Below, piece by piece: positions 8,578-25,936 of a stretch of 34,526 nucleotides of DNA. Below the pieces are notes generated by a model. That model had not been told where the DNA came from, ran no database searches, and saw only the letters and a list, made by a program, of their open reading frames with translations. Source of the DNA: Candidatus Thorarchaeota archaeon (lineage in GTDB: Archaea; Asgardarchaeota; Thorarchaeia; Thorarchaeales; Thorarchaeaceae). Each line of letters starts with the position of its first letter. The stretch's first letter is position 1. Location: NCBI GenBank assembly GCA_016839605.1, contig JAEOTX010000248.1, positions 1 through 34,526 on the forward strand, given 5' to 3'. Both the position numbers and the translations under genes were made by a program.

Positions 8578-11500
8578 TTACTTCTTCTTCACTAGGAAGA
8601 GAATCAGTATCACTACTACTCCAACGCCAATACCAGCAATCAAACCCAACAGCAGTGGGTCAATCGGCGGTGGTGGTGGTGGAGGTTCGGTTGTCGTGGT
8701 TGGCGTAGTTGGTACCGTAGTCGTTGTTGTGGTTGTTGGTGTTGGTATGGTACCACTCCCAAGAGTGAACACGTCATCGCTCGCATCAGGTATGGATGGA
8801 TCTCCTGGCCAGAGGGTTGGTAGACCAAATTGACCGGCGTATGCTGTATCGTTGTCAAAGGCTGTGACCTCGATGAGCGCCTCGTCAGTCGCCAAGATTG
8901 CAGTTGTAGTCCATGAGTAGTAGTAGTAGCTATTGACTGCATCATATGGCACTGGTCCTGTGAAGAGTGTCTGCCAGTATGTTCCTCCGTCCTTGGAGAA
9001 CCGGATCTGGTAGATCAAATCATCTCCGTTCGCATCATCTGAGGTGAAGGTGATGTTGTGAGTACCAATACTCCAGTCCTCGCCTCCCATAGGAGCTAGC
9101 AGCTCAATGGTTGGGATGAAGAAGTTCCCGAAAGTCACTGCGTTGAGGGTTTCCACCCATGCAACCTCAGTAGCTGTGTAGGCTGTCACCTGAATGTCCT
9201 TGGTGATGTTGAAGTAGAAGTCGTAGGTGTCGTATATGACAGTCCTTCCGGGTACTGCTGGTTGTGCCTCGGCTGAACGAGTATCCACAGTGTAGCTCCA
9301 TGTGCCGGGATCCTGGTCATAGTTCCAGCAAACGATAATCATGGTATCGTTAGTTGAGGTCCAAGTGAAGCTACCAACTTCAGGATGGGCCCCTGAGGCC
9401 ATGGTTCCACCTGCTGCAGTTACCAGGTCATTGCCGTATGACGCTGGCGTTTCTCCATCAACGACCCAGAAGTCACAGTCACCAATCGAGAAGTCACAAA
9501 CTATATCGACCGGATCACCAGGGGCGAGACCCTTGATTACCGCGATCGAAACTTGATCCGCTGGCAAAGGTGTATCGGGGAAGTTGAATGGGGTGTTCGC
9601 ACCCAGTGTTGGGATAACCAGAGGTATGTCATATTCCTCAAAGAACAATCCACTCAGGAACGCAAGTTCGGTTTCCACGATCTCGAAGTCTGGATTCAAC
9701 GGGAAGGTGTAGTCTGTATAGGTGAAGTTCAGCTCCACGTGATGTCCAGCTAGAGTTTCACTGCTGCCAAATGCTGTGGCTGCTCCACCACCAACCGAGT
9801 AGGTTGACTCCAAGCTCGATGAAGGTCCTTGCATGAACCACTGAACCTCGAGCGTAATCGCCTCATATGGATCAGTTCCATTCCATGCACTGACAACCAA
9901 CTGGAGATACCATTCTCCACGGTAGAGATACACACTCTCGGGACCACCATCGAAGACCATAGTGTTGTACGTTGGTCTCACTGGGGGTTCGTTGAGTGGG
10001 TAGTCATAGAGGTTGGTCTGGGCAAGAACATAATCGCTCTCATAGCTTTCAATGAGAAACATGTCCACAACAGTTCCAGGATTCTCCCAGCTCACCTTGA
10101 ATGCCAAGACTGAGCCGTTTCCTGCATTTGCAGGTAACCCAGCATCTGCAGGCTCTGGCACTTCAATGCGGAATGTTCTCTTGTCTCCAGCTCCTGCAAA
10201 GTTCTCCTCATAGAGATCAGCAGCTGCGAACACAGCACCGTTGTCGTATGGATTGAAGTCAGTTCCCGCTCCATCAACCATGGTGACTACTTCGCCCTCA
10301 GGCACATCTAGGTCTACGGCAACCATGTAGGAGAATGGAATCTGGTGAGTCCAGGTTCCACTGTCGACTTCAACAAATCCAGCATGGACACCATACTCAT
10401 CACTAGTTGGAGTGACTGTGACGTTGAAACCACCTGTGTGAGAATCTACGCCAAGTGATCCAGTCTGTACCTCCCATGTAATGAGTGATACCTTGAAGTC
10501 ACGGCCATGTGGTGCAGAATCCTCCACCTGTAGGGTTGGAGTGTTCTGGAAGATGTTGCTGATGCCGTTGACATCACCGATTCGTATTATCATGCTGTTG
10601 AACTCGTTGTAGGCTCGACCAATGTTCCGCAATGTGTCACTGGCAGAGAAGCCCTCACCCCATGGAGTGTAGACCATATTGTAGTAGTTCAACTCACCGT
10701 TTCCGGCTAGATTCCCTGGACCATCGTCAGCCCAATCGAACAGCCTGCAGATCGAGAACTCGCCGATGTAATCAGCATCGAAGTTCACCACTACGAATGC
10801 ATATGGATCAGCAAAAGCTGCATCAATCTCGGCTTGCAAGTAGCCTGCATCTAGGAATTCTTGATTCAAGTCGAAGAATCCTGGACGCTCGACTGCCGGG
10901 TCGAAGCCGCTGTCATCGTAGGTGTAAGTAGTTCCCTCAAAGCTCAACTCATCGCCCATAACATATTCCCAAGCTGTGACACCATAGTTACCACTCGCTT
11001 CGTAGTCGACGCCGTCGTAGCCAGTTGCATTGACAGTCACCGTTTTCGTTTCACCTGGAAGTACATCTCCGAAGAAGATGCTACTCGTCAGTGCCGGTGT
11101 TTCATTCAGCGGATACGGGGCAGACGGGTGTCCGGGTGGGTAAGGCATTCCTTCCCAAACATCATTTGGTATATCGAGCCAGTTATCGCCACCAGCTGCT
11201 GCAGGCCATGGGGCATGATAGTATCCAGCATATGCCCAAATCCACCAGCGCCATGAGATGTAGGCGGACTCATAGTAGTTGTCCATTGTGTCACCAGTCT
11301 GGAAGTAATATCGATCATTCATCATGCCATCAATGGCCAAGCATGCCTCATAGGCGTTGACCTGTCCATGACCCTGAATGAATGGATCCATACCCAAATC
11401 CTCTGATGATGATAGCACGACCTCCTTCAGCACGTAAGGATCGTAGGCCCATCCGTTGTCCATCATAGCCTCAAGTGCGACTGCTGCAACTGCAGCTGCC

Positions 11501-13671
11501 AACGGTGAGGATAGACTTGTGCCCTGCCACCACTTGTAGGTGACTGCAGGCGCTCCACTGACATAAAGGTAGGGTAGACCTTCATACATGATGTTCTGGA
11601 TAGGTTGTGGATTAACTCCTCGATAGCCGGGTGCAACTACGTCAGGCTTTGGATATCCTAAGAAGTTTGGACCCATCGAAGAGAATGCTGCGGGGGAATT
11701 TGCATTAATCTGACCTTCTGAGTAGAAGTTGTTCCAGTAGTGGTTCTTGGTTGTAGCACCAACACAGACAACAAGTCCTCCAGTGGCTGGCGCTCCGCTT
11801 GACATGTATCCTGGACCAGAGTTACCTGATGATGAGAACATCAAGATGCCCTCATAGGCAGGATCTGCGTACCCTGGTATCGACATAGCATCAAACGCTA
11901 AGGTCGTCCAGAACAAGTCAAACTGGGAGCCTGCACCCCAACCCCAAGACATCGTTAGGATGTCAGCCTTGTGTTCGCCGGTGTACTCCCACATACCAGA
12001 TGTGGAATTGAGATGGAATCCGCACGCCCAGAATGTTCCTCCAAAGTCGTCAAAGATACTCGCGCTGCCGAAGTTCTTGATTGACATCAGCGAAGCGCCA
12101 GGAGCAACACCAGGTAGGAAGTATTCGGTATCGTTCATTGGGTCGTTGCCTTCGTAGACTTTGTGACCAAAGACTCCACGTGAAGCAATCGAACCTGCAA
12201 TCCACTGACCGTGGTTGGTTGAAGGGGTCCCGGAGTACTCTGCATAAATCAGACCGAATCCTAGACCATCAGCTCTGAATCCACAGAAGAGTTCCTCATC
12301 GGTGGCATTCATACCTGTGCCTGCAAAGTAGGTTTCATTGAAGTAGTGTGTGTAGAAGTCGGGATGGTCATACATCCAACCCAACGACCCAAGGCCATAA
12401 TAGTTTGTGCCATCATTGTAGTGCACAACTGGTCCCTTTTCAGTTCCATCAACGGTGTAAATCCAGCCTCCATCATAGTCGTCCTTGAAGCTCCAGTCCA
12501 TCATTCCCTGCATCAAATCAATATACTCAGTTACATTCGGGTCCGCGACGGTCTCGTGCCAGTAGACATCGTTGATTAGTTTTGAAAACGTGGCCATGCC
12601 TGCCCAGTCGATTACCAATTTACTTGCATCAAGCACAAGTGCTGGTGCATAAAAGGCATCGAAATGGTCATCACGCATTTCATAGACCCACCCAACGGTG
12701 TAATTGTCAAAGCTACCTGGAGCTGGCAATTCCCAGTCCCTCCACAGATAGGGTTCAATGAACCAAGTATCTAGACCATATCCGTAAGCACCGAAGTGTT
12801 CAGATAGAAGCCTCCTGAGCCAGTGAGCTGATGCACTGAAGGGCGCTCGAGCAGTAATTGGGTCCCAATCTGTGACGTTGAGGTAGTATTTGCCGCTCGT
12901 GGCGTTGTAATAAGTCAGGGCATAGCCTGCAGCAAGCCATTCAGTGGTATTAGCAACGTTAGTGGCATTTGCGTACGTAAGGAACTGAGTTCCAGCACCT
13001 GAAGGATCGTACGATGTTGGTCTGCCCATTGAATCTACATCAGCTGCGTCGACCAAATCAGGAACACTGAAGTCTGCGCAAAAATCAGTGACAGCAACGG
13101 TCACACCGTCACCCGTGTAGCCCAGACCAGCTGCACCTGATGAACCAAGATCATCAGCGATCTCGAACATGTCAGGTTCAGGTACGTCAGTGCGCATGTC
13201 AATTTTTGGTATTGTCTTATCAGCTGAAATATACATCAAGCCATCGAGCTTTGTGAGTATTCTTGCGTCTCCGGATGTGAATACCGTACCATAGACGTAA
13301 GTCGCAAAGCCCATATCAACAGCCCAATGGACTTGGGCATTCTCCTTCACAGCATTTACATCAGAACCGGGGAATAGGACTAACAGGAAGTCTACGCCGC
13401 CATGCGACGTATCCATCTCAGTAGTAGTAGCATCGGTTTCAATATAAGATGCAAAGAGGGAGTCTACCTTTTGTTCCCTCGCCATAGGATCACTCAATCG
13501 TTCATTGATACTATCGACCATGTCGACTGCCTGATCCACCATGGTGGGGGAGGTGCTAAATGGTGATGCTTCAGATGTTCTCATCACTATGGCTGGTGCT
13601 AGAAATAGCGAAGCAGACAAAGTGACAATGAGAAGCAGTACCACTGCACGTCTCTTGTATAAGTATAACAT
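8578..13671 (-). CDS. Very large membrane-anchored subtilisin-like serine protease (S8)
   Basis: Secreted, surface-anchored protease of 1697 residues. It starts with a signal peptide (basic 'YKRRAV', hydrophobic 10-31). Catalytic residues are Asp196 in 'GVTVAVTDFCADF', His487 in 'TNHGQWIAGSI', oxyanion Asn617 in 'FSSSGNSGPG' and Ser719 in 'QGTSLSSPLAAA'. The Asp motif is unusual (DFC, not DTG/DSG). The Asp-His distance is 291 residues instead of a few tens, because of an aromatic-rich insertion (about 205-480). Residues 850-1520 are beta-rich, with many N-x-S/T sites. An Fn3-like domain (about 1520-1635), a Thr/Pro stalk, one membrane helix (about 1673-1694) and KKK follow. The ATG has GAGGAG upstream. 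A terminator hairpin follows. Substrates are unknown; exoprotein digestion or surface-protein processing are both possible. Confidence 0.9.
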   Translation of the reverse strand: MLYLYKRRAVVLLLIVTLSASLFLAPAIVMRTSEASPFSTSPTMVDQAVDMVDSINERLSDPMAREQKVDSLFASYIETDATTTEMDTSHGGVDFLLVLFPGSDVNAVKENAQVHWAVDMGFATYVYGTVFTSGDARILTKLDGLMYISADKTIPKIDMRTDVPEPDMFEIADDLGSSGAAGLGYTGDGVTVAVTDFCADFSVPDLVDAADVDSMGRPTSYDPSGAGTQFLTYANATNVANTTEWLAAGYALTYYNATSGKYYLNVTDWDPITARAPFSASAHWLRRLLSEHFGAYGYGLDTWFIEPYLWRDWELPAPGSFDNYTVGWVYEMRDDHFDAFYAPALVLDASKLVIDWAGMATFSKLINDVYWHETVADPNVTEYIDLMQGMMDWSFKDDYDGGWIYTVDGTEKGPVVHYNDGTNYYGLGSLGWMYDHPDFYTHYFNETYFAGTGMNATDEELFCGFRADGLGFGLIYAEYSGTPSTNHGQWIAGSIASRGVFGHKVYEGNDPMNDTEYFLPGVAPGASLMSIKNFGSASIFDDFGGTFWACGFHLNSTSGMWEYTGEHKADILTMSWGWGAGSQFDLFWTTLAFDAMSIPGYADPAYEGILMFSSSGNSGPGYMSSGAPATGGLVVCVGATTKNHYWNNFYSEGQINANSPAAFSSMGPNFLGYPKPDVVAPGYRGVNPQPIQNIMYEGLPYLYVSGAPAVTYKWWQGTSLSSPLAAAVAAVALEAMMDNGWAYDPYVLKEVVLSSSEDLGMDPFIQGHGQVNAYEACLAIDGMMNDRYYFQTGDTMDNYYESAYISWRWWIWAYAGYYHAPWPAAAGGDNWLDIPNDVWEGMPYPPGHPSAPYPLNETPALTSSIFFGDVLPGETKTVTVNATGYDGVDYEASGNYGVTAWEYVMGDELSFEGTTYTYDDSGFDPAVERPGFFDLNQEFLDAGYLQAEIDAAFADPYAFVVVNFDADYIGEFSICRLFDWADDGPGNLAGNGELNYYNMVYTPWGEGFSASDTLRNIGRAYNEFNSMIIRIGDVNGISNIFQNTPTLQVEDSAPHGRDFKVSLITWEVQTGSLGVDSHTGGFNVTVTPTSDEYGVHAGFVEVDSGTWTHQIPFSYMVAVDLDVPEGEVVTMVDGAGTDFNPYDNGAVFAAADLYEENFAGAGDKRTFRIEVPEPADAGLPANAGNGSVLAFKVSWENPGTVVDMFLIESYESDYVLAQTNLYDYPLNEPPVRPTYNTMVFDGGPESVYLYRGEWYLQLVVSAWNGTDPYEAITLEVQWFMQGPSSSLESTYSVGGGAATAFGSSETLAGHHVELNFTYTDYTFPLNPDFEIVETELAFLSGLFFEEYDIPLVIPTLGANTPFNFPDTPLPADQVSIAVIKGLAPGDPVDIVCDFSIGDCDFWVVDGETPASYGNDLVTAAGGTMASGAHPEVGSFTWTSTNDTMIIVCWNYDQDPGTWSYTVDTRSAEAQPAVPGRTVIYDTYDFYFNITKDIQVTAYTATEVAWVETLNAVTFGNFFIPTIELLAPMGGEDWSIGTHNITFTSDDANGDDLIYQIRFSKDGGTYWQTLFTGPVPYDAVNSYYYYSWTTTAILATDEALIEVTAFDNDTAYAGQFGLPTLWPGDPSIPDASDDVFTLGSGTIPTPTTTTTTTVPTTPTTTTEPPPPPPPIDPLLLGLIAGIGVGVVVILILFLVKKK

Positions 13672-13957: not shown

Positions 13958-15040
13958 TCAAGAACCACGTGCCATCTTCTTTATTCCATCGACTATCTCA
14001 TGTGCAATCATCACTGCACCAATCAGCTCAATCTTGGGCTCTGCTTTTACGAGTCCACTAGGAGGCGCAGATACTCTGCCCATTGCTCGTCCCATAGTCT
14101 TGATGAGAGTAGTTATAGCAATTTGAGCAGATACATCTAGCGGACTGCCCTCAACCTGAGAGATTAATTCGGCAAGGTCCGAGATGACGCTGTCTGATAC
14201 TTCTGAGGCGGTCTCTGCCCTTCGGACATAGTCTTGGAGTTTTGCCATACTATCAATGTCCACAGCACCCGGTGCTGCAGCTTCAGACTCAGCCTTCACC
14301 TTCAATAACTCAATCTCAGACTGAAGATTGCTTATGGTCTGGTCCTTCTCTGATATGGTCTGCAGAAGCTCTTGCTCCTGGTCAGGGCTTGCGCCTGCAG
14401 CGCTTAGGCTAGCCTCCATTGCCGACATAGCAGCTTCTCTCTCAGAAACCTCTTCCTTAATGGCATCCAACTGACCTTGCAATGCAGTGAGGGTGTTTTC
14501 TTTCTCTGAGAGGAACTCGTTAAGCTCCTTGTTTTCTCCTTCAATTTTCTGAACATTGCCCTTCATGGACTTCATCTTATCCTGTGCTTCTTTGAGCACA
14601 TCGCGGAGAGCGACAAAATCTGGATCTGGGGGAGAGATTACTTTGCTCGCGATGCCTGCGAAAATGACAGCCATGATGACTATATACAGGGCGCCGATGA
14701 AGATTCCATAAATCTCGTTTCCAAAAATCAGATCTGTCATGATCTGAATCACACCCATGAACTCCTGATATGTTCCGAAGTCTTGGCCTTCCACCCAAGG
14801 TGTGCCACCAAAGGCCGCGTAGAGAAGCGTAATTATTCCCGCTAGGAAACTCCCACCACCAGCTGCTACCAAGAGATTCCGCCTACCACTATCCTGAGGC
14901 AAATGTCTCTGATATAGCAGTACAGCTGCTCCAATGAATAAGAGCGGTAGTACATATGGCGTGACCGCAAGAACATCCACCATGGGATAATCAATTTCTA
15001 TGGCTGCATGAAAGCCGGCGACAATGTTGGGATTGGCCAT
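13958..15040 (-). CDS. Membrane protein with three helices and a cytoplasmic coiled coil, unknown function
   Basis: A 360-residue protein. Three membrane helices are predicted at about 24-44, 57-77 and 112-136. A long coiled coil (about 145-250) follows, with heptad-like 'KELNEFLSEKENTLTALQGQLDAIKEEV' features, then an Ala-rich linker and a C-terminal helical domain (about 265-360, ending 'MIAHEIVDGIKKMARGS'). No enzymatic motif is present and I do not recognise the family. The layout suggests a membrane-tethered scaffold or a structural protein that oligomerises in the cytoplasm. The ATG has a strong Shine-Dalgarno (AGGAGGAT). The promoter contains a perfect palindrome at the expected start site. 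Confidence 0.75.
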   Translation of the reverse strand: MANPNIVAGFHAAIEIDYPMVDVLAVTPYVLPLLFIGAAVLLYQRHLPQDSGRRNLLVAAGGGSFLAGIITLLYAAFGGTPWVEGQDFGTYQEFMGVIQIMTDLIFGNEIYGIFIGALYIVIMAVIFAGIASKVISPPDPDFVALRDVLKEAQDKMKSMKGNVQKIEGENKELNEFLSEKENTLTALQGQLDAIKEEVSEREAAMSAMEASLSAAGASPDQEQELLQTISEKDQTISNLQSEIELLKVKAESEAAAPGAVDIDSMAKLQDYVRRAETASEVSDSVISDLAELISQVEGSPLDVSAQIAITTLIKTMGRAMGRVSAPPSGLVKAEPKIELIGAVMIAHEIVDGIKKMARGS

Positions 15041-15110: not shown

Positions 15111-15160
15111 AAAAACATAAAATCAGAGTGTTCTGCCCCACAGAGACCTGAGGGACAGAA
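15108..15160 (-). terminator. Hairpin terminator of the small unknown gene
   Basis: On the minus strand TTCTGTCCC ... GGGGCAGAA (15160-15152 / 15139-15131) can form a 9-bp stem with one U-G pair and a 12-base loop. It begins 12 bases after the stop of the gene at 15173-15463 and is followed by a T-rich stretch (GATTTTATGTTTTTG). On the plus strand the same stem has a C-A mismatch, so the minus-strand transcript is favoured. Confidence 0.5.
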
Positions 15161-15172
15161 CCATTCGAGCAT

Positions 15173-15463
15173 CTAGCGCTTCCAGAGCTCGCCTTTCATC
15201 CTTTCATGGTCCTCAACGATCGTCTCAAGAGTCTTGAACAGCCTACTGGCCTCATCAATATTGAGAAGAAAGGCGCCCTTGATGTCGCGGTCCTCACCCA
15301 GTGAAACACGGATTCTGCCATCATTCACCCAACCCTCATCAGTCTTCTGAGGGGGTTGAAGCTGAACCTCTAGCCAAGTCCTTCTCTTTGCCCCGGTCTC
15401 CCGGTCGTCAAAGAAATGCTTGATCTGGAGTCGGCGTTCGTATATCCGCGGTTTAGTACTCAT
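15173..15463 (-). CDS. Small conserved-looking protein, unknown function
   Basis: A 96-residue, charged, soluble protein. The track starts at GTG 15475, but that GTG is part of the Shine-Dalgarno (GAGGTG) placed nine bases before an in-frame ATG at 15463 ('MSTKPRIYERRLQ'), which I take as the start. Predicted layout is several beta strands ('LQIKHFFDD', 'TWLEVQLQPP', 'RIRVSLGED', 'KGAFLLNID') followed by one C-terminal helix ('EASRLFKTLETIVEDHERMKGELW'). That beta-sheet plus helix order vaguely recalls PC4-like single-strand nucleic-acid-binding folds, but this is only a resemblance. A terminator hairpin follows the stop, so it is probably a single-gene unit. Confidence 0.65.
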   Translation of the reverse strand: MSTKPRIYERRLQIKHFFDDRETGAKRRTWLEVQLQPPQKTDEGWVNDGRIRVSLGEDRDIKGAFLLNIDEASRLFKTLETIVEDHERMKGELWKR

Positions 15464-15640
15464 TTTACACAGCACCTCGATTCAGACAGGTATTCCTGAC
15501 CTATCCTCATATTATATTTGCACAAAAACGGATTTACCCTCATTTCTCGGTGCTGCCGAGCTGGAGTTGTTCGTGCAATGTCGCACTAAAGATAACCCTT
15601 ATCTGAACTCCGGAAACACTCCGCATGGACGGACACACAT

Positions 15641-18541
15641 ATGGTCAGCTACCATCGCAGCTACAGAACAAGACTCCTTGCAGGTCTTCTGATTGTGACT
15701 CTATTGATGCCAACATCGATGCTTTTTGTGGATGCCAGGAGGGATGATGTATCAGCAAATCCAATAATTGATCCCTTGCTTGCAGCAGCCATTGAGAACA
15801 CATCATCTGGTGAGAAGCTGCCCGTTGTGGTTTATTTCCCAGAGGGCACAACTCCAGAAAGCATCAGTTTGTCCATTGACGGGCTCGAACTAGGCGGCAT
15901 TGAGATGCGCCATGTGTTTCATCTAATTCCTGCAGCATCGCTCTATGCGACTGCGACTGGAATTGACGCTCTGTCAAATCTCTATCCCGTTCAAGGCATC
16001 ACTCTTGATGTTGAAAGAAATATTCTGGAAGAAGAGATTCCAGAATACTATACACTGAGTAGTCAGGATCTCGAATATGAACACTTCACTGAAACTCTTG
16101 CTGCCGAGGATATGTGGGGACAAGGCTACTTTGGTAATGGTACAACCATTGCTGTGCTTGATAGCGGCGCACAGGGAGACCATCTTGATCTTCAAGGACA
16201 ACTGATTGGTTTCAAAGATTTCATCGGCGCTGGGACTGATATGACCCCTGGCGACGGAATTAGTGCTTACGATGACAATGGACATGGCACAGCAGTTGCT
16301 TGGAACGCCGCTGGATCAGGTGTGGCAAGTGGTGGAAATCTCACAGGAACAGCTCCTGGAGCTAAGCTCTTGATAATCAAAGTGCTAGATGGCGATGGTG
16401 CAGGTGACGACTCTATTATTGCTGAAGGTATCGAGTTTGCTGTAGATCAGGGAGTTGATGTCATCAGTATCAGCCTTGGCGGCCCCTGGATGGAGAACCA
16501 GTTCATCGTAGAACCTTCTGTCTTGGCCATTACTGAAGCAGTGGATGATGGTGTTTCTGTTGTAGTAGCAGCAGGTAATTCGGGTCCAGCATCGTTCACT
16601 ATAAATTCGCCAGGCATTGTGCAAGAAGCTATAACAGTAGGCGCCTCAGCTGGTTCAGCAGGAGTCGTATCCTTTAGCAGCCGAGGTCCGGTTGAAAGAA
16701 CCATTAATGATCCTCTGGGACTTCATGCGAAACCCGATGTTATAGCACCGGGTTCAGCAGTTGTATCGGCACGATGGATAGATTCCGATACAGACGAATA
16801 CACACCCTATGAAGTAGAAGATTATGGAGCGAACTATACACAGTGGGCGGGAACCTCAGCATCAGCACCGCAAGTCGCTGGTCTAGTCGCCTTATTGAAA
16901 CAGAAGCATTCTGCTCTGACCCCTACAGAGGCGAAAATTGCACTGATGGCAGGAGCAACAGACCTGGGGGCAGATTCCATGGAACAGGGCTGGGGAGTGC
17001 CGAATGTTACACTTGCTTCAGAGATAATCACCTCTGGGTCAGGCGATCTCACCATTATGACTCCTCGTACGTATCCAACTCTACCTGGGACGTCTTCTGT
17101 ACAGATTGTGGGAGAAGACCGTCCAGACCAGAACATAACTATCATCTCGACTCACTCTTTGGGAACAGTAGATGTAGTCCTAGAAGGCAATGCTAGTCAG
17201 TTCGTTAGAGTTGGAGAGAACCAGATTTTCGTTAGCACAGGTTACAATTATCTCTCGATTGGACTAGACGTACAAAGTGATCTTCCGCTCAGCTCAATTG
17301 GATATTATTCAGGAGAGCTAACATTAACGTCTGGCGGGCAGAATTTCACAAGTATTGAAATCGAATTCTCAATCACAACCTACGGCGGTCGACTACTAGT
17401 TGATATGACTCATCACGATGAGGACCTTGACGACCCGTCTGCATACAGATACTTCCAGGATTATCTCCGAGAGCAGGGAGTTGTCTTGGATCAGTTCAGT
17501 GGGGACCCTCTTCTTGCCCCGCCGAGCATAACTCTTAGTGATCTAGCGACAACCGAGGCATTCATGATCATGGACACAGAAACGGCATATGGCTATGGCG
17601 AGATTGAAGCCTTGCATGATTTTGTAGAAGAGGGCGGGACGCTCATTGTGTTCTCAGAGTACTACAACGAGACCACAGGGCAAGCTTCGTTTGGAATTGA
17701 CGACTACAATAGGATTCTAGAACCCTATGGAATCGAGTGTCTCAGAGTTGGGATTGGTGAAGGCCCCAGCACGTTCACTGGAGCCTTCTATGGTGTAGAC
17801 AATGGAGGCGCTGTAGAAATAGACCCACTCATGGAGGGAGTTTCAAACCTCTATGTCCTATGGGGGAGTACTCTGAGTGTAGATCCTTCTGTTGCGGGTG
17901 CTAGAGGACTCTTCTGGAGAGATACTTCAAAGACACAAGCGATAGTCGCGGTCGCAGAATCAGGTGAAGGGCGAGTCATCGTAATTTCAGATGGCTCCAC
18001 CTTGTATGATGATATTCTGTATGATGCAATTCGTGGAGATGCTGACAATCTGAACCTGCTCAGAAACTTGGCAGGTGCTCTTCAAGCTGAATCCCCAAGG
18101 ATCTTTGATGTTGATCTGGAAGCAGACCGCATTGGAGACCTTGCCAACTTGACAACCTATGTCTTTGATGATGATTTAGTGAGTGTCGATATCTCAGTAA
18201 TTGGACCTAACGGTGAGGATATCACAGGTAGCATAGCTGAGTCATTGGGTTACAAATACGCAACTAACTTCATCCTTTCGAGTGGAGGCTTCTTTGAAGT
18301 CACAATAGTAGCCACCGATGCAAATGATAATGTGAAGACCTTCCACAAACTATTCCTTGTCCCACTTGATCCAGCTGATGATTTGTTCATCAATATCGTC
18401 ACCTTCAGCTTACTAGGCATTGTGGGCGTATCTTTACTATATGTGGTGATGATCAGAAGAAAACCGAAGCGGAAGAGATCGGTTGAATTTCAACCAGAGC
18501 CACAACCAGATGAGTATACTCCGCCGCCATCTATTTCATAG
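15641..18541 (+). CDS. Membrane-anchored subtilase with site-1-protease-like domain order
   Basis: Secreted S8 protease of 966 residues, anchored by one C-terminal helix. Signal peptide about 1-32; pro-region about 58-130; catalytic domain 150-460 with Asp174 ('AVLDSGAQGDH'), His215 ('DDNGHGTAVA'), Asn313 ('AAGNSGPAS') and Ser406 ('AGTSASAPQVAG'). A beta/Fn3-like region (about 470-580) follows, then a Rossmann-like domain (about 583-815) with 'FMIMDTETAYGYGEIEAL', 'GGTLIVFSEYYN' and 'GEGRVIVISDGSTLYDD'. After another beta domain comes a membrane helix (about 916-938) and a cytoplasmic tail starting 'RRKPKRKR'. This order is that of eukaryotic site-1 protease (MBTPS1/SKI-1). The IFT52/GldG-like middle domain has no expected catalytic role. 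Its TAG overlaps the convergent oxidoreductase stop by 11 bases. Protease identity is certain; relation to site-1 protease needs alignment. Confidence 0.93.
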   Translation: MVSYHRSYRTRLLAGLLIVTLLMPTSMLFVDARRDDVSANPIIDPLLAAAIENTSSGEKLPVVVYFPEGTTPESISLSIDGLELGGIEMRHVFHLIPAASLYATATGIDALSNLYPVQGITLDVERNILEEEIPEYYTLSSQDLEYEHFTETLAAEDMWGQGYFGNGTTIAVLDSGAQGDHLDLQGQLIGFKDFIGAGTDMTPGDGISAYDDNGHGTAVAWNAAGSGVASGGNLTGTAPGAKLLIIKVLDGDGAGDDSIIAEGIEFAVDQGVDVISISLGGPWMENQFIVEPSVLAITEAVDDGVSVVVAAGNSGPASFTINSPGIVQEAITVGASAGSAGVVSFSSRGPVERTINDPLGLHAKPDVIAPGSAVVSARWIDSDTDEYTPYEVEDYGANYTQWAGTSASAPQVAGLVALLKQKHSALTPTEAKIALMAGATDLGADSMEQGWGVPNVTLASEIITSGSGDLTIMTPRTYPTLPGTSSVQIVGEDRPDQNITIISTHSLGTVDVVLEGNASQFVRVGENQIFVSTGYNYLSIGLDVQSDLPLSSIGYYSGELTLTSGGQNFTSIEIEFSITTYGGRLLVDMTHHDEDLDDPSAYRYFQDYLREQGVVLDQFSGDPLLAPPSITLSDLATTEAFMIMDTETAYGYGEIEALHDFVEEGGTLIVFSEYYNETTGQASFGIDDYNRILEPYGIECLRVGIGEGPSTFTGAFYGVDNGGAVEIDPLMEGVSNLYVLWGSTLSVDPSVAGARGLFWRDTSKTQAIVAVAESGEGRVIVISDGSTLYDDILYDAIRGDADNLNLLRNLAGALQAESPRIFDVDLEADRIGDLANLTTYVFDDDLVSVDISVIGPNGEDITGSIAESLGYKYATNFILSSGGFFEVTIVATDANDNVKTFHKLFLVPLDPADDLFINIVTFSLLGIVGVSLLYVVMIRRKPKRKRSVEFQPEPQPDEYTPPPSIS

Positions 18542-19814
18542 GTCCGAAAGTTCGTTCCAGAAGAGAGAGAATCTGTTCGTGCCTCCCCTGAAGCATTGGT
18601 CGTTCCTTGAGCGTCGAACCAGCTTCTACGCGATTGAGTATCTCATATCCTACGCGAGCACCCATCCTTGCTGAGAGGACTTGCCCTCCGATTAATCGTC
18701 CTTCTTTATCTGTAACTAGAGCTACCTTCATCGCCTCATTGGGGTCCTCCAGATACTGGACTTCGGTTTCAAGACCTACATCCTTTGCACTTGTAGATGA
18801 ATGACCAATGCACACTATGTCCGTATCAAAAATACGGTCATATTGAAGCATTACAGAGGTATCTTCGTACACTTTCTCTCTCCCAACCGCCGCAACGCCA
18901 GCCTGTCTTCCTGCTCTGGCTGCAGTGCTACCTATTGGCATTAATCGTGGCTTGCCTGTAAGAGAATCAATCATCTCCACACAGTCACCAACTGCATAGA
19001 CTCCATCCTTACTTGTTTCAGTCATATTATTGATTGTAATGCCACCTAGTGTACCAACTTTGATACCAAACTGCTCCGCAAGTGAAGCATTGGGTCGCAC
19101 ACCGGTCATTAAAAGGACAATGCTTGTATCAATGGTTTTCCCGCCCACCTCTATCGCAGTCACATGTTTTGATCCAACAACAGATGTAGGAGCGGAACCA
19201 AGATGCAGCTTGATTCCACGAGGAATTCGCGACAATAGGTCTTCGCTCATTGCCTCTTCTAACTGCTTACGCATTAGTCGGGACCTGATAATCAGATGGA
19301 CTTCTTTTCCCATCTTGTGAAGGCGTTCAGCGGTTTCAAGACCACTGAAACCAGCACCAACTATCACTGTCGTATCTGCCGTGTCCAGAGCTTTTCCGAT
19401 TACTGACGTTTCAGCCATCGACTGAATTGTATAGACTCCTGGAAGATCTATTCCGGGCATTTCCGGTACAGAAGGAACGCCACCTGTAGCAATGATTAAT
19501 CGGTCATATTGATGGGTGGATGATTTCCCATCGGCTGATACAATTTCGAGACTCTTCTTATCCAAGTCCCCGCCGACTACTTTCATCCCAGACTTGACTT
19601 CAATTCCCCCTTTCTTGAGAGATTCATAAGACCAATCGCGGATTTCGAGCTCACGGGTTTCAGGGTGTTCAAGAGCCATCGTGGCACCAGGCTTCTTATG
19701 CGCTGGCAGAGTTTCCTCTGTTATTATTACAATCTCTGCACTTGAGTCAAAGGTCTTGGCAGCTGTTGCTGCTGCCACACCTCCAGGTCCATATCCAACG
19801 ATTGTAATTCTCAT
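18531..19814 (-). CDS. FAD/NAD(P)-dependent pyridine nucleotide-disulfide oxidoreductase family protein
   Basis: Flavoprotein of about 427 residues with an FAD-binding 'ITIVGYGPGGVAAATAA' at the N-terminus, 'LIIATGGVPSVPEMPG' (about 107-123), a second dinucleotide motif 'VIVGAGFSGLETAERL' (about 151-166) and the FAD-closing 'DGVYAVGDCVEM'. A C-terminal dimerisation domain like that of NADH oxidase / CoA-disulfide reductase is present. The redox cysteine those enzymes carry near residue 43 is absent: the aligned stretch reads 'PAHKKPGATM'. It therefore may act as a ferredoxin/rubredoxin-type reductase or general NAD(P)H oxidase. The start was chosen at the ATG eight bases after GGTGAT, rather than the track's GTG (19820), which overlaps the upstream stop. 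It is co-transcribed with the subtilase gene before it. Confidence 0.88.
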   Translation of the reverse strand: MRITIVGYGPGGVAAATAAKTFDSSAEIVIITEETLPAHKKPGATMALEHPETRELEIRDWSYESLKKGGIEVKSGMKVVGGDLDKKSLEIVSADGKSSTHQYDRLIIATGGVPSVPEMPGIDLPGVYTIQSMAETSVIGKALDTADTTVIVGAGFSGLETAERLHKMGKEVHLIIRSRLMRKQLEEAMSEDLLSRIPRGIKLHLGSAPTSVVGSKHVTAIEVGGKTIDTSIVLLMTGVRPNASLAEQFGIKVGTLGGITINNMTETSKDGVYAVGDCVEMIDSLTGKPRLMPIGSTAARAGRQAGVAAVGREKVYEDTSVMLQYDRIFDTDIVCIGHSSTSAKDVGLETEVQYLEDPNEAMKVALVTDKEGRLIGGQVLSARMGARVGYEILNRVEAGSTLKERPMLQGRHEQILSLLERTFGPMK

Positions 19815-19816
19815 CT

Positions 19817-22800
19817 TCACGCATCACCTTTCCTTCTAGAGAGTGCCCGAGGCAAGTAGTATACGATGACAGCAATTCCAATGACGCCCGCAGCTAGCAG
19901 AACAACCATTGAATTGTCCTCTACTATGAGCAACGTGCCGATATGTAACTCTACTGATTGCCCTGTGATACTCTCAGCTGCAGCATAGACCTCGTATTCA
20001 CCTGCAGCGAATGATGAAGGTACAACGTCAATAGGATAGATCCCTCCCGCTCCACTTAGCGTGAAATTGAGACCAGGACTTGCATTCCGCTGGAAGCTTA
20101 TCCAAACACTTTCAGCTAGAATGTAGCCTTCGATTACAATCTCCCCAGTGACACGGGCGGGTAGGAACGGACCAATAACCAACATATCTTGGTCAATTGC
20201 TGCACTCACTATACGAAGAGTTGTAATCTCTGCGGCCAGCAATACTAGAGGCAGATAGACTGTGTAAGACGAATCGCTCACATTGAAGAGTATGGAATAT
20301 GGAAAGTTGTAGTTTGGTAAATCCACTTGGACTTCAACCGTTGCATTCTCATGTCCAATCTCCGAACTCGTACTAAGAATGTCGTAATTCTCATCAAGAA
20401 CACTCCATTGAATAGAAAACGAATCAACTGGATCATCCCGATCGGACATTGTGATTGTCACATTGAACACATCGTAAACCGAATCGACATCTAGGTCTGT
20501 AACTATAGGCCTCCATTGATTCTGCATTTCAGCGAAACCAGTTTGATCTACAGGAGATATTGTGAGATTGCTAGTTGATACAAAGATTCTCCCGCGAATA
20601 TCGGGGCTGCTCTTCTCTATGCTGATGAAGGCTGTTTGTGAGTCAGCCCATCGATTCACAGACAATGCTGCAGGGGAATAAGATAACCCTGTCCATTCAT
20701 ATGCAGTAGCTACTCCACCGGTGAGATTCACCTGAACATCTGCTCCTAAGAGACCCGTAGTTATCTCCGAGTCATTGTCCCAATGCAATGTTAGGATATT
20801 GTCGCCCCCGAAGTCTGCGGTAGACCTCATTGTGGCGGCTATGACTAGACGTTCAGTGTCCTGATGCGCCTTCACGCTCAGAATGTCAAGGTCGCCAGCA
20901 ATGGAGAGGTCAGTTCCTGAGGACAAGACATCTTCATAGCCAGTCCATTCTGCTAGACTCATCCCATATGTTATTGGAGAACTAAGGACGTGTCTGACAG
21001 ACCATAGTGAATCTACCAATCCATATCCCCATGCATCATCTGCGGGGCTATAGTGGGACCCCTGTCCACCAGCACCTGCAGTGAGTGCAGTGAAGTCATT
21101 CCATGCGCTTGGTTCAGGAGATGCTTGTCTGATTAACGCCAAAATACCAGCAACATGAGGGCTCGCCATACTTGTGCCACTCCGCGATGTCCAAAGACCA
21201 GATAGAATCTGAGATGCAGCATGAATACTTGCTCCTGGTGCCGCTACGGTGATTGTCTTGGCACCGTCAATCCTCGGACCCCTACTTGACGATGAATATA
21301 TCCCATGTGACCCATCATCATAGCAGCCTACAGTAACCGCCAGGTCTGCAGTACCAGGGGAACTAATTGTTCTAGTGTTGACAACGTTGGTTGTGAATCT
21401 CAGATTCGATCCAACCCAAAAATTGTCCCATGCATAAGCATCGACAGTAATCATGGCTCCAGTTGGATTTGTCAGTCCAACCGACCACGAACCAGAGGTC
21501 CAATTATGGTCGTCCTCGGATACTTGAATCAGGAGATTGTTCATTCCGCGTAGGCTTGTTTCTGCGAAAGCGTAGGCGTGCAGTTCAGGCTGTTCAATAA
21601 CAAAGGAGTCGCCAACCAATTCTGAGAACTGTCCAGTATCAATTATCACTCCACTAGGCGTCTTGAGGAAGACATGCTCATCCCGATCGGCACTTCTCCA
21701 CAAGAAGCTAATAAACGAAGCATCAGGAGGCGTGCCAACTGTAAGACCACTACTTGCATTGCTTCCTACCGGAACCGAAAAGAGAGCATGCTTCGGTGAG
21801 TTGACTTGGTTTCCTAGGTTTCCAGCTGCGATAGCGCTAATTGTACCGTATTGGAGAAACGCCTCAGTTACTGCAAGGTCCTCTGCATCTGTACCATCTA
21901 GAAAACCAAGATAGCTAGAGAAGGACATGTTTATGATATCCGCTCCGTTCTCACATGCAAAGTGAATTGCATCCAAAATATCACTTGATTTCAATGGGCT
22001 CTTAATCGCTATCAGATCCGCACCGGGAGCAACACCGACATAGCTAGTGAATCCAGGCTGGCCTCCTAGAATTGTTGATGACACATGTGTACCATGTCCA
22101 TTGGTGTCGGTGACAGAAATGCCCATCGTAGTGAGATTTGTACCTCTTTCGTAGACACGATTGCTGGCTTGGTCGTAAAGAATGGCAATTTTGGACTCAC
22201 CAAATATGACGACATGCTCGGCAGGCAAGTCAGCGCGGCCATTGGTATTGGCATCAATTCCTCCAAGCCAACGGTCACCTTCATCATACTCGAAGACACT
22301 ATTCCCATCTGTATCGATAAACATGTACTCATTTGCCAATTCTATTGTTGAGGGATTTTGGAGGTCTATATGACTGATTGGACCCTCGTTGGGATCTGCT
22401 ACTGAATCGCTGTCGATATCAACGTAGAAGTCGTCTCCAAGTTCTTCAATGACATCATAGGGGCCTTCTGACTGCCGCCAAAAGGAGGGATGATTCATAT
22501 TGACGCCTGTATCAATTACCGCCACGGTTACTCCAGACCCATTGATGCTATTCCCGTTCTCCTTCAAGTTAGCCCAAACGTCAGGAGCTTTTGTTGCAGG
22601 AACGGATGATATCAGTGAGGGGACATACTGTTTTTCTCCTGAAGTTGCACGTAAAAGCCCAATTCTAGCAAGTGTTTGAAGAGATCCCAGACTTCTTGCA
22701 CGAGCAGAATAGATTCTGCCAACATTGACGATTGTGCCACTCCGTTTCACGAACTCAATACCCATTGATTCAGCAAATTCAAGCTGCTGTGGTGAAAGTT

Positions 22801-23008
22801 TTTGTTCAAATTGCAGTATTACGCGATGACCTTCGGTTGAGGGCATATCTTGGGTATTAGATTCTCCAGATAGCTCCATCTTGAGTTGTGTTCCAATAGA
22901 GGGCTCAACAAAATCAGCTATGAAATTGGATGAAGCACCATTCGTAGGAATTGCTGGGACTACTAAAGAAATAATGAATAATCCAAGTATTAGATATCGT
23001 TTAGGCAT
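19817..23008 (-). CDS. Membrane-anchored subtilisin-like serine protease with calcium-loop-like insert
   Basis: Secreted S8 protease. I place the start at ATG 23008 ('MPKRYLILGLFIISLVVPAI'), which gives a proper signal peptide, has GAGGG seven bases upstream and a possible TATA (GCATATCAG) further up. The track's 23053 start adds 15 residues without a Shine-Dalgarno. In this 1063-residue form the catalytic residues are Asp166 ('VAVIDTGVNMNHPSF'), His305 ('DTNGHGTHVSS'), Asn397 ('AIAAGNLGNQ') and Ser613 ('SGTSMASPHVAG'). Between Asp and His lie three acidic loops ('DIDSDSVADPNE', 'DTDGNSVFEYDE', 'DANTNGRADLP') that look calcium-binding. A beta-sandwich ('VFLKTPSGVIIDTG ... GSWSVGLTNPTG') is inserted between Asn and Ser. 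The C-terminal half is beta-rich, ending in one membrane helix and 'RALSRRKGDA'. Downstream it overlaps the oxidoreductase operon partner. Confidence 0.92.
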   Translation of the reverse strand: MPKRYLILGLFIISLVVPAIPTNGASSNFIADFVEPSIGTQLKMELSGESNTQDMPSTEGHRVILQFEQKLSPQQLEFAESMGIEFVKRSGTIVNVGRIYSARARSLGSLQTLARIGLLRATSGEKQYVPSLISSVPATKAPDVWANLKENGNSINGSGVTVAVIDTGVNMNHPSFWRQSEGPYDVIEELGDDFYVDIDSDSVADPNEGPISHIDLQNPSTIELANEYMFIDTDGNSVFEYDEGDRWLGGIDANTNGRADLPAEHVVIFGESKIAILYDQASNRVYERGTNLTTMGISVTDTNGHGTHVSSTILGGQPGFTSYVGVAPGADLIAIKSPLKSSDILDAIHFACENGADIINMSFSSYLGFLDGTDAEDLAVTEAFLQYGTISAIAAGNLGNQVNSPKHALFSVPVGSNASSGLTVGTPPDASFISFLWRSADRDEHVFLKTPSGVIIDTGQFSELVGDSFVIEQPELHAYAFAETSLRGMNNLLIQVSEDDHNWTSGSWSVGLTNPTGAMITVDAYAWDNFWVGSNLRFTTNVVNTRTISSPGTADLAVTVGCYDDGSHGIYSSSSRGPRIDGAKTITVAAPGASIHAASQILSGLWTSRSGTSMASPHVAGILALIRQASPEPSAWNDFTALTAGAGGQGSHYSPADDAWGYGLVDSLWSVRHVLSSPITYGMSLAEWTGYEDVLSSGTDLSIAGDLDILSVKAHQDTERLVIAATMRSTADFGGDNILTLHWDNDSEITTGLLGADVQVNLTGGVATAYEWTGLSYSPAALSVNRWADSQTAFISIEKSSPDIRGRIFVSTSNLTISPVDQTGFAEMQNQWRPIVTDLDVDSVYDVFNVTITMSDRDDPVDSFSIQWSVLDENYDILSTSSEIGHENATVEVQVDLPNYNFPYSILFNVSDSSYTVYLPLVLLAAEITTLRIVSAAIDQDMLVIGPFLPARVTGEIVIEGYILAESVWISFQRNASPGLNFTLSGAGGIYPIDVVPSSFAAGEYEVYAAAESITGQSVELHIGTLLIVEDNSMVVLLAAGVIGIAVIVYYLPRALSRRKGDA

Positions 23009-23134
23009 TAGTGTACCCTCTAGATGGACTCTTTGCTCGTTCATGAGATGCATCTGATATGCTTTTGCCTAATGTCGTGGATGCGAGATACGACCCAATG
23101 AGCCTATTCCAAGACACAAAGTGCTGCCACAGTT

Positions 23135-24496
23135 CTACTCCTTTGCGATTAATGACACATCCTTAAAGACGATCTCTGGTCCAATGATACTCTGCAGGTA
23201 ATGAGGTGTCTTCGCAATCTCATCTACTTGATTCAACAGGTCGTAAACATTACCTGCAACCATCAAACCATGGACTGCTCCGACCATCTTCCCATTCTCA
23301 ATGAGAATTGCAGGATTGCCGACAATGCTGAAGTCTCCGGATTCGGGATTTGAGCTATGGGCACCCTGAACTCCACGAATGTAGTATCCATGCTTCGTTC
23401 CCTTGATTATATCCTCAATTTCGCGTTCGCCCGGCTCTACAACAATGTTGCTTGGAGATATATCAACAAGACCTTGTCTCATGTTTCGTTTCGCATTTCC
23501 CGTGCTCTTAACACCCATCTTGTTGGCCCAATATGTGTCCCAAAGGAATGAACGCAATACACCTTTCTCTATGATTGGTGTTCGCCTTCTTGGAACTCCT
23601 TCATCATCAGCAGAAGAACTTGATACTCCTCGCGGGTGAAGACCATCATCTACAACCGTAATCTTTTCTGATGCTATCTTTTCTCCAAGTTTATCACCAA
23701 TCTTGGATTTGCCTCTGGCAACGTTATCGCCTCTGATAGACTGAATCAATGTGAAATTCATGACTTGACCATAGGCTAAAGGATGCATGATGATAGTGTG
23801 CTTCCCTGAATTTCCTTTAACAGAGTTCTTGCAGATTTGTATAGTAGATGCTACATCATCAACTGTCCCTTCCACATCTACATTCATATCGCGTGCAATG
23901 TCATATGCGAATACCATTGGTGTCATGCCAGTATCAGTCGGTGCTATTCCACCTAAGACAACTAGTGCAAACGTGCCCTTGTCTGAATGAGCAACACCAT
24001 TGCTGTTGGCATAGGCGGCACTAAAACCGATTGCAGCAGACCCACCAAATCCAGGAATCAGGTCAGGATCAGCTTTGACAGATAGACTAAGCGCTTTCCC
24101 AGCCAGGCCAACTACCTCGCCTGAGTCGGAATCTACTACTGAGTCCTGCCAGAGTCCTTCAATAACCGGATACTCATCGGCTGGGGATGGAAGACCAGAC
24201 CAGTCCTCATCTTCAGTAGTGGCCTTTGCGGCAGAAATCGCGAGGTCTAGAGCCTCATTTGCAGCATCCTGAGTAGGGATGTTTGTGAATGCGGATCCCA
24301 TTCTTTTTCCGATAAACAATCTAATTGCAATCTCAGACAGGTTCTTTTTGCTTACCTGGCTAATCTGTCCCATCTCGACGTCAGATTCGACTTCCGACTC
24401 TGAGGCAGCATGAACCTCGATGTGTTCTGCTCCCTTTTCTTTGCCAGCTTTGACGATGTATTCACAAAGGTCAAGAAGTGTTTTCTCTTCAATCAT
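23135..24496 (-). CDS. pmbA: TldE/PmbA family protein, metal-free partner of TldD
   Basis: Non-metallic subunit of the TldD/TldE heterodimeric peptidase, which degrades or trims unstructured peptides (in E. coli, microcin B17 maturation and CcdA degradation). The 453 residues cover the whole family: N-terminal 'AEHIEVHAASESEVESDVEMGQI', the middle 'FGGSAAIGFSAAYANSNGVAHSDK', and the C-terminal 'DFSIVGNPAILIENGKMVGAVHGLMVAGN'. The HExxxH metal site of TldD is missing, as expected for TldE. A strong Shine-Dalgarno (TAGGAGG) overlaps the stop of the tldD gene, and the gap is only 12 bases, so the two are co-expressed and presumably form the complex. Confidence 0.93.
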   Translation of the reverse strand: MIEEKTLLDLCEYIVKAGKEKGAEHIEVHAASESEVESDVEMGQISQVSKKNLSEIAIRLFIGKRMGSAFTNIPTQDAANEALDLAISAAKATTEDEDWSGLPSPADEYPVIEGLWQDSVVDSDSGEVVGLAGKALSLSVKADPDLIPGFGGSAAIGFSAAYANSNGVAHSDKGTFALVVLGGIAPTDTGMTPMVFAYDIARDMNVDVEGTVDDVASTIQICKNSVKGNSGKHTIIMHPLAYGQVMNFTLIQSIRGDNVARGKSKIGDKLGEKIASEKITVVDDGLHPRGVSSSSADDEGVPRRRTPIIEKGVLRSFLWDTYWANKMGVKSTGNAKRNMRQGLVDISPSNIVVEPGEREIEDIIKGTKHGYYIRGVQGAHSSNPESGDFSIVGNPAILIENGKMVGAVHGLMVAGNVYDLLNQVDEIAKTPHYLQSIIGPEIVFKDVSLIAKE

Positions 24497-24508
24497 GATA
24501 TTGGCCTC

Positions 24509-25936
24509 CTAACTTGAACCTCCAAAAGTAATTCCGCCCTTCAAGAAACGAATGTTTGGACCTCCAGCTGCAACAAATGCCTCCTGTCCCTTTCCACATC
24601 TTCCTAATTCAAAGGGGAAGTCCTCGTTAGCAACACCTTCTATTTTGAAGAGAGAGTCAGTTGCTATTCCTGAAATAGACAAGTCTGTCACTGGCTTACC
24701 AAGCTCTCCATTAACAATCTCGTAGGCTTCCTGAATTCCAACTTGGAAGGATGCATTCATCTGGGCTTGTCCACCTCTGAAGTCTGCACAATAGTAGCCG
24801 AACTCAATTCCCTCAAACATCTCATCAGGATTATAGTCACCTCTCTCAAAGAGAGTGTTCCTCATCCGTATGATTGGTGGATGAAGATAACTCTCAGCTC
24901 TTGCATTTCCTGTGACTCGCTGACCGATTTTCGCAGCATATTCTCTGTTCGTCATCAGTTCTGTCAACACTGAGTCTTTGATGATCTCAACTCGAGATGC
25001 CAATGAAGCCTCATCATCATACTTTGACGTGCCCAGGTTGCCTTCATCAACTCCATTGTCAGTCATACTGACTCCTTCTGCGGCCACAACCTCTCCTACC
25101 TTGCCATTAAACGAGCTTTGGACTGTCAGGTCTGCTTCAGCAAGATGGCCCAAAGCCTCATGCGCCAGAACTCCAATAACGCGAGGGCCTAGAACGCATG
25201 GGAAGGAACCACCCTTAGCTGGAATGCCTTCAAGTTGGAGCTTGACACGTTTTGCAGCTTCCAGACCTATGACTTCTGGAGTTGCAACTTTCTCCAAGTA
25301 CTCCCAGCCGCTCTTTGTGGATGCGTCTTCATAGCGAGCAGCGCTAAGGCGTGTACCATCCTTACCTGTAACCCAAGGATAACTCCACACCAAGACAACA
25401 TCCGTTTGAATTCTAGAGCCGTCGGAGGTCATCAGGTATTTCTTTCCAGAAGCAGTCCTTATCTTCACTGTGACTGCTGTGATCCGCGAGTCAAAATCAC
25501 GGATTTCTTTCGTCATATCCTGCATATACTGTAGCTTCTCTTCTATCGGAACATGACGCGGATCACGTTTCACATCGAAATCTAGTACATCCTCATGCGC
25601 TTTTGTTTCTGCGAGAACGATTGGCTCTCGTCGTGTGATGGCCGCAGCCCTAGCCATTGAGTAGGCATCTTTGACTGCATTATCAAGTCCATTCAAATCA
25701 CTCGTAGTAACGAATCCCCACGCACCATCAGCGAGAACCCTCACAGCAACTCCCTGCTCAAGCCTCTGTGTTAGCGCGCTTACTCGACCGTCATCCATCT
25801 GAATATATTCGATGAAGCCAGATTCCCCTCGGAGTTCCACATAACTTGCTCCAAGGCCGCTTCCAATTTCTAGAGCACTCTCTAATTTCTCAAACAACGT
25901 AGTATCAACCCTGCAGAGTGGCTTTGTATGCCACAT
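24509..25936 (-). CDS. tldD: Metalloprotease TldD
   Basis: Catalytic, zinc-binding subunit of the TldD/TldE peptidase, cytosolic. The 475-residue ORF has the metal motif 'LAHEALGHLAEADL' (His259, Glu260, His264) and the third ligand candidate Cys447 in 'GRCGKGQEAF'. Length fits the family. The start is uncertain. The track's ATG (25936) has no Shine-Dalgarno, and a TATA-like CTTATTA lies so close upstream (about 25947-25952) that transcription might begin downstream of it. A TTG at 25897 would give 'FEKLESALEIGSGLGASYVELR', the usual archaeal TldD N-terminus, with a weak GGTTGAT upstream. First gene of the tldD-pmbA operon; divergent from the TPR gene. Confidence 0.95.
   Translation of the reverse strand: MWHTKPLCRVDTTLFEKLESALEIGSGLGASYVELRGESGFIEYIQMDDGRVSALTQRLEQGVAVRVLADGAWGFVTTSDLNGLDNAVKDAYSMARAAAITRREPIVLAETKAHEDVLDFDVKRDPRHVPIEEKLQYMQDMTKEIRDFDSRITAVTVKIRTASGKKYLMTSDGSRIQTDVVLVWSYPWVTGKDGTRLSAARYEDASTKSGWEYLEKVATPEVIGLEAAKRVKLQLEGIPAKGGSFPCVLGPRVIGVLAHEALGHLAEADLTVQSSFNGKVGEVVAAEGVSMTDNGVDEGNLGTSKYDDEASLASRVEIIKDSVLTELMTNREYAAKIGQRVTGNARAESYLHPPIIRMRNTLFERGDYNPDEMFEGIEFGYYCADFRGGQAQMNASFQVGIQEAYEIVNGELGKPVTDLSISGIATDSLFKIEGVANEDFPFELGRCGKGQEAFVAAGGPNIRFLKGGITFGGSS

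What the first reader, a model, noticed from the sequence alone, without database searches (positions are those of the whole stretch)
15641..18541. Archaeal subtilase with the full domain order of eukaryotic site-1 protease
Beyond the S8 catalytic triad, the protein has the same series of parts as MBTPS1/SKI-1. There is a pro-region, a catalytic domain and an Fn3-like beta region, then a Rossmann-like (IFT52/GldG-type) domain, one C-terminal membrane helix and a basic cytoplasmic tail. From memory of the human protein, local similarities lie in the non-catalytic middle domain, not only in the protease: 'GGTLIVFSEYYN' here against 'GLSLVIFSDWYN' there, and 'GEGRVIVISD' against 'GGGRIVLYGD'. If this holds in an Asgard genome, it would suggest that an intramembrane-signalling protease of eukaryotes had an archaeal forerunner.
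Basis: partly seen in the sequence, partly recalled or inferred. Interest (0 to 1): 0.72.

Follow-up and report, generated by a model that had tools for sequence, protein, structure and literature searches.

The report
Archaeal surface protease resembling site-1 protease
A membrane-anchored protein-cutting enzyme in Thorarchaeota has the same order of main parts as the animal and plant enzyme that releases cholesterol- and stress-response factors, and so do many other Asgard archaea, the closest known relatives of eukaryotes; whether the eukaryotic enzyme really descends from it is not settled.

Summary
The ORF at 15641-18541 encodes a 966-aa Thorarchaeal subtilase with this layout: signal peptide, propeptide, S8 domain, beta-sandwich, GIFT-type (GldG/IFT52-like) domain, Ig-like domain, TM helix, basic tail. 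Both recalled motif pairs align with human site-1 protease (S1P). Foldseek ranks S1P first in the PDB for the whole model (E 1e-34, 760 columns) and for the non-catalytic half alone (E 9e-14). A profile of 53 Asgard homologues matches S1P in one collinear stretch (E 2.5e-19). The layout is Asgard-wide: among 396 near-complete archaeal genomes, listed full-span matches came only from Asgard; other archaea gave the GIFT domain alone. Limits: GIFT is a superfamily, and IFT52 scores higher than S1P (6.5e-24). The window protein's own subfamily profile matches the two equally. The beta-sandwich core has no significant sequence similarity to S1P. An 84-row S8 tree leaves S1P unplaced, and AU tests reject neither an Asgard nor a bacterial home. 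Bacterial chromosomes were not surveyed. So an S1P-like architecture with a homologous GIFT domain is supported; descent of S1P from Asgard archaea is plausible, not shown. The gene lies in a conserved Thorarchaeal protease island.

The parts
15641..18541 (+). Membrane-anchored S8 subtilase with S1P-like layout, 966 aa
15674..15730 (+). N-terminal hydrophobic segment, predicted signal peptide (res 12-30)
   Evidence: hydropathy; helix 8-22 in AF2 model
15764..16021 (+). Propeptide, I9-like alpha/beta fold (res ~42-127)
   Evidence: AF2; PDB profile match to ProN-Tk-SP from query position 35
16133..16996 (+). Peptidase S8 catalytic domain (res 165-452); triad D174 (16160-16162), H215 (16283-16285), S406 (16856-16858), oxyanion N313 (16577-16579)
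   Evidence: Pfam; invariance
17030..17383 (+). Beta-sandwich, placed like the P-like subdomain of S1P (res 464-581)
   Evidence: AF2; Foldseek alignment spans it; its core has no significant sequence match to S1P
17384..18085 (+). GIFT-type (GldG/IFT52/S1P GATase-like) alpha/beta domain (res 582-815)
   Evidence: Pfam MBTPS1_4th, ABC_transp_aux, DUF4350, IFT52_GIFT; PDB profile; Foldseek
18086..18364 (+). Ig/Fn3-like beta domain with no S1P counterpart (res ~816-908)
   Evidence: AF2; weak Filamin/PKD/Big_13 Pfam matches in orthologues
18380..18460 (+). C-terminal membrane helix (res 914-940)
   Evidence: AF2, hydropathy
18461..18538 (+). Cytoplasmic tail: basic near the membrane, then acidic and proline-rich, ending near PPxI[EQV] in nearly all orthologues (PPSIS here)
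   Evidence: alignment
8578..13671 (-). Second large S8-related protein (1697 aa), signal peptide and C-terminal TM, conserved neighbour
13958..15040 (-). Coiled-coil membrane protein (360 aa, about 3 TM), divergently oriented, conserved neighbour
18531..19820 (-). Pyridine nucleotide-disulphide oxidoreductase, convergent with an 11-base overlap, conserved neighbour
19817..23053 (-). Third S8 protein (1078 aa) with signal peptide and C-terminal TM, conserved neighbour
23135..25936 (-). TldD/PmbA pair, next to the island in many of the loci that reach far enough

Best explanation
It is an active, type-I membrane-anchored cell-surface subtilase, and the Thorarchaeal member of an Asgard-wide family with the layout S8, beta-sandwich, GIFT domain, TM. 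It is exported through a signal peptide, matures by loss of its propeptide, and stays attached by one C-terminal helix with the protease outside and a short tail inside. The beta-sandwich probably stabilises the protease, as the P-like subdomain does in S1P. The GIFT domain, held between protease and membrane, probably binds substrate, partner or glycan. The most likely job is limited, site-1-like cleavage of surface or membrane proteins (maturation, shedding or quality control), as part of a conserved island of three anchored S8 proteins. Shown by computation: fold, catalytic residues, topology, conservation, shared ectodomain layout with S1P and homology of the GIFT domains. Inferred: activity, substrates, the role of the GIFT domain, and any link to signalling.
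For: S8 triad and oxyanion residue invariant in orthologues 47-58% identical to it over full length. AF2 model of the non-catalytic half has mean pLDDT 87.7. Foldseek PDB: S1P 9csd is rank 1 for that half (E 9.3e-14, 429 columns; next IFT52 3.0e-9) and for the full chain (E 1e-34, 760 columns; next Tk-SP 1.6e-31, which covers the protease part). The profile of 53 Asgard middle regions hits S1P at 2.5e-19 in one stretch running from the end of S8 to the end of the GIFT core. hhalign of S1P's middle region against an Asgard ~1250-aa subset gives E 3.4e-14 over 283 columns; shuffled queries score 24.5 at most against 106. A single C-terminal TM with a mostly basic tail recurs across the family. 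Gene order is conserved in some 30 Thorarchaeal loci.
Against: No substrate, expression or activity data. The beta-sandwich core alone does not match S1P by sequence, so its kinship rests on fold and position, and beta-sandwiches after S8 domains are common. The superposition onto S1P is poor globally (TM-score about 0.33, rmsd 11.6), so the domain arrangement may differ. The S8 part of the full model is partly low-confidence.
Confidence: 0.62

Rival explanations
1. Convergent architecture: a GIFT domain, common in archaea and bacteria, was fused independently after a subtilase in Asgard archaea and in the lineage leading to eukaryotic S1P.
For: GIFT is promiscuous: Asgard and other archaeal genomes have many GIFT-only proteins; IFT52, not S1P, is the best PDB hit of the family profile; the S1P S8 domain is pairwise nearest to Streptomyces-type subtilases; the beta-sandwich core has no sequence similarity; the S8 and GIFT trees do not place S1P.
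Against: Same order of four parts including TM and basic tail; full-span architecture in Asgard and in no other archaeon sampled; S1P GIFT scores higher against Asgard protease-linked GIFT of the ~1250-aa group (92) than against GIFT-only archaeal proteins (59-60), and its highest GIFT identity is to an Asgard S8-GIFT protein (25%).
Confidence: 0.35
2. Bacterial origin: S1P came from a bacterial subtilase that already had this layout, and the Asgard family is a side branch or also acquired it.
For: Streptomyces-type S8 domains give S1P slightly higher BLASTP scores (129-136 bits) than Asgard ones (121 at most); AU does not reject S1P with them (p 0.216).
Against: None of the 17 bacterial comparators carries the GIFT domain; the six checked with Pfam carry at most PA, fn3 or Ig-like (ASH) matches instead; tblastn of Thor and Asgard middle regions against 72,556 plasmids found nothing. 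Bacterial chromosomes were not searched.
Confidence: 0.2
3. It is a nutritional extracellular protease: an anchored scavenging subtilase in a peptide-degrading lineage, with the GIFT and Ig domains as mere spacers or S-layer contacts.
For: It sits among other S8 proteins and next to a TldD/PmbA pair; Thor genomes carry several more S8 genes.
Against: A full-length orthologue in most Thor genomes with conserved gene order and invariant non-catalytic residues, including a conserved tail end, suggests a dedicated role.
Confidence: 0.3

Closest known systems
Site-1 protease (MBTPS1/SKI-1/S1P), MEROPS S8, PDB 8uwc, 8uw8, 9csd
   Same: Order signal peptide, propeptide, S8, beta-sandwich, GIFT/GATase-like, one TM, basic tail; GIFT domain homologous by profile; best PDB structure match
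   Different: Extra Ig-like domain before the TM; sequence identity in the middle region only about 20%; no SPRING1 match in this genome; the two-part A/B propeptide of S1P not examined; catalytic domain not shown to be its sister
IFT52 N-terminal GIFT domain (PDB 5fmr, 5fms)
   Same: Same alpha/beta GIFT fold; strongest PDB sequence-profile hit for the family's GIFT domain
   Different: Cytosolic intraflagellar transport protein with no protease
GldG / ABC_transp_aux (PF09822), DUF4350 (PF14258), OST48 (Wbp1)
   Same: GIFT superfamily
   Different: No S8 domain; transport-associated or glycosylation functions
Tk-SP and other archaeal subtilases (PDB 3afg)
   Same: Propeptide and S8 domain, closest single-domain PDB sequence hit
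   Different: No GIFT domain

Membership tests
Peptidase family S8 (subtilase) | Pfam PF00082 over cut-off with D-H-S triad and oxyanion Asn | tested here: met
   167.5 bits; D174, H215, S406, N313 invariant
GIFT domain superfamily | Recognisable GIFT/GATase-like alpha/beta domain | tested here: met
   Four Pfam GIFT-type models hit the same stretch though below cut-off in this protein; Foldseek IFT52 target TM 0.76; family profile hits IFT52 at 6.5e-24
Site-1 protease (MBTPS1) | Pfam MBTPS1_4th above its gathering score | tested here: inconclusive
   24.1 bits on the whole protein and 26.7 on the middle region, cut-off 27; 29.5 for the frame in the six-frame search
Site-1 protease (MBTPS1) | Ectodomain order S8, P-like sandwich, GIFT, then TM and basic tail | tested here: met
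   with an additional Ig-like domain before the TM
Site-1 protease (MBTPS1) | P-like sandwich homologous to that of S1P | tested here: inconclusive
   Foldseek alignment spans it; core not significant by sequence
Site-1 protease (MBTPS1) | Catalytic domain in one clade with S1P | tested here: inconclusive
   S1P unplaced; AU p 0.164 with Thor, 0.133 with the long Asgard group, 0.216 with Streptomyces-type
Site-1 protease (MBTPS1) | Activator SPRING present (accessory, not part of the enzyme) | tested here: not met
   No PF10218 match in the host genome, which is 80% complete
Site-1 protease (MBTPS1) | Cleavage after RX(hydrophobic)X in membrane substrates, followed by a site-2 protease | not testable with these tools
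   M50 peptidases exist in the genome, but also in all 14 control genomes

The most novel reading that the evidence does not exclude
Eukaryotic site-1 protease descends vertically from the Asgard S8-sandwich-GIFT family, of which this is the Thorarchaeal branch, so a key endomembrane signalling protease began as an archaeal cell-surface protease before the ER and Golgi existed.
Probability: 0.4. Interest if true: 0.82.

Novelty: new variant of a known kind. Interest (0 to 1): 0.62.

Why it matters
The prokaryotic source of S1P is, as far as the searched literature shows, not described. A membrane-anchored Asgard family with the same layout gives a concrete candidate and makes the question testable by phylogeny and biochemistry. 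It also puts GIFT domains, found in the eukaryotic IFT52, OST48 and S1P, on anchored surface proteases of Asgard archaea.

Tried and rejected
Thor-only middle profile against the PDB: weak, tie between IFT52 and S1P. S8 trees: in a quick tree S1P joined a long Rhizobium branch (86 SH-aLRT); after post hoc removal of long rows it joined an Asgard S8-GIFT protein (95/92); in the larger set it was unplaced. The grouping is therefore not used as evidence. GIFT-domain tree: unresolved. The f20 ~825-aa Asgard proteins, close to S1P in size and S8 score, do not match the S1P middle region significantly. Plasmid tblastn with Thor and Asgard middle regions: no match. S1P-like autoprocessing motif: R129-N-I-L in this protein is not kept in orthologues (read), so rejected as a site. 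Presence of site-2-type M50 peptidases: uninformative because universal. Literature searches for an Asgard or archaeal S1P found nothing relevant.

Full report
What is there. The ORF 15641..18541 (+) encodes 966 aa. The contig belongs to an Asgard genome: close orthologues lie in records titled Candidatus Thorarchaeota, with a few labelled Lokiarchaeota or just archaeon. Pfam gives one strong domain, Peptidase_S8 at 165-452, and four weak, overlapping GIFT-type matches near 598-700: MBTPS1_4th 2.8e-5, ABC_transp_aux 3.1e-5, DUF4350 4.8e-5, IFT52_GIFT 0.058, all under their cut-offs.

Conservation. Full-length orthologues, 47-59% identical, occur in most of the sampled genomes of the same family. 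The triad D174/H215/S406, N313 and many residues of the middle region (MDTE 644-647, GG 665-666, SE 672-673, DGS 784-786) are invariant across 20 of them. The tail ends in PPxI[EQV] in nearly all.

Structure. The non-catalytic half (464-905) is modelled with mean pLDDT 87.7 as a beta-sandwich, an alpha/beta domain and an Ig-like domain. The full-length model is weaker (76.3), with parts of S8 under 50. Foldseek against the PDB: for the half, human S1P 9csd is first (9.3e-14, 429 columns), then IFT52 (3.0e-9, one domain) and GH42-type glycosidases. For the full chain S1P is first (1.0e-34, 760 columns), then Tk-SP (1.6e-31). Global TM-scores are low (0.33), so the match is domain by domain, in order, not one rigid body.

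Sequence test. The human S1P sequence used as a yardstick was checked letter for letter against 8uwc. The Thor-only middle profile hits IFT52 (0.0027) and S1P (0.0035) alike, so this subfamily alone does not single out S1P. A profile of 53 diverse Asgard middle regions hits IFT52 at 6.5e-24 (GIFT only), S1P at 2.5e-19 in one stretch from the end of S8 to the end of the GIFT core, and OST48 at 4e-5. Split into parts, the GIFT half carries 56.6 bits, while the sandwich core carries none and 13 bits come with the end of S8 included; 300 shuffles of S1P reach 5.0 bits at most. hhalign of S1P's middle region scores 106 against the Asgard ~1250-aa subset (families f12, f16, f5, f6, f3, f24, f21), 53 against the Thor set and 59-61 against GIFT-only archaeal or Asgard proteins; shuffles reach 28 at most. 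So S1P's GIFT domain is homologous to the Asgard one, and the closest Asgard relatives are the longer proteins of other Asgard families rather than this Thor subfamily.

Distribution. With the 53-row profile over 396 near-complete archaeal genomes, the listed matches spanning the end of S8, sandwich and GIFT occur only in the window's phylum; the listed matches of other archaea, mostly one family (f34), start at about profile position 111-165, that is GIFT only. Seventeen bacterial plasmid S8 proteins have no GIFT match; the six checked with Pfam carry at most PA, fn3 or Ig-like (ASH) domains. Bacterial chromosomes could not be searched.

Catalytic-domain phylogeny. In the 84-row tree the Thor clade is firm (100/98) and the Streptomyces-type clade is firm (100/99), but S1P is a long unplaced branch inside a modestly supported cluster (85/83) dominated by Asgard proteins. 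AU tests reject none of S1P with Thor (0.164), with the 13-row long Asgard group (0.133) or with the Streptomyces-type clade (0.216). An earlier tree that joined S1P to an Asgard protein (95/92) was built after removing long rows seen in a first tree and did not survive a larger set; it is not relied on.

Neighbourhood. Around 30 Thorarchaeal loci, as far as their contigs reach, keep the same block: S8 protein (~1600-1700 aa), coiled-coil membrane protein, then divergently this gene, then convergently a pyridine nucleotide-disulphide oxidoreductase, a third S8 protein (1078 aa), and in many a TldD/PmbA pair. The two other S8 proteins also have a signal peptide and a C-terminal TM but no GIFT match.

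How it probably works. From fold and topology: exported, propeptide removed, protease domain outside, GIFT domain between protease and membrane, short tail inside. Established knowledge: in S1P the P-like subdomain is needed for folding and the enzyme ends in a TM helix and short cytoplasmic tail (PMC11231238); GIFT domains were named for GldG and IFT52, occur in Wbp1/OST48 and have been proposed to bind sugars (PMC7226087). Inference: limited cleavage of surface or membrane proteins. A signalling role is possible but without evidence here.

Verdict. It is not filed as a site-1 protease.

Noticed in passing
window 8578-25936: Three large membrane-anchored S8 proteins, a coiled-coil membrane protein, an oxidoreductase and a TldD/PmbA pair form a gene block conserved across some 30 Thorarchaeal loci.
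   Followed up: partly
window 8578-13671: The 1697-aa S8 protein aligns to the S8 profile only in its second half plus a short first stretch with D-F-C where D-S-G is usual; a His motif was not aligned, so its activity is doubtful.
   Followed up: no
L037, L041, L045, L048, L090, L094 (Asgard ~1250-1330 aa proteins): S8-GIFT proteins of several other Asgard families end in zinc-ribbon motifs after the C-terminal TM, that is on the predicted cytoplasmic side.
   Followed up: partly
L239-L245, L247, L248: A second, shorter Thor class (658-730 aa) has an N-terminal membrane segment, a weaker S8 match, sandwich and GIFT, and no C-terminal TM.
   Followed up: partly
A7 profile against PDB: The GIFT domain of Asgard subtilases matches IFT52 (6.5e-24) more strongly than S1P and reaches OST48 (4e-5), three eukaryotic membrane-traffic or ciliary proteins.
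   Followed up: partly
window:18461-18538 and orthologues: The last residues of the cytoplasmic tail (PPxI[EQV]) are conserved although the rest of the tail varies, suggesting a binding motif.
   Followed up: no
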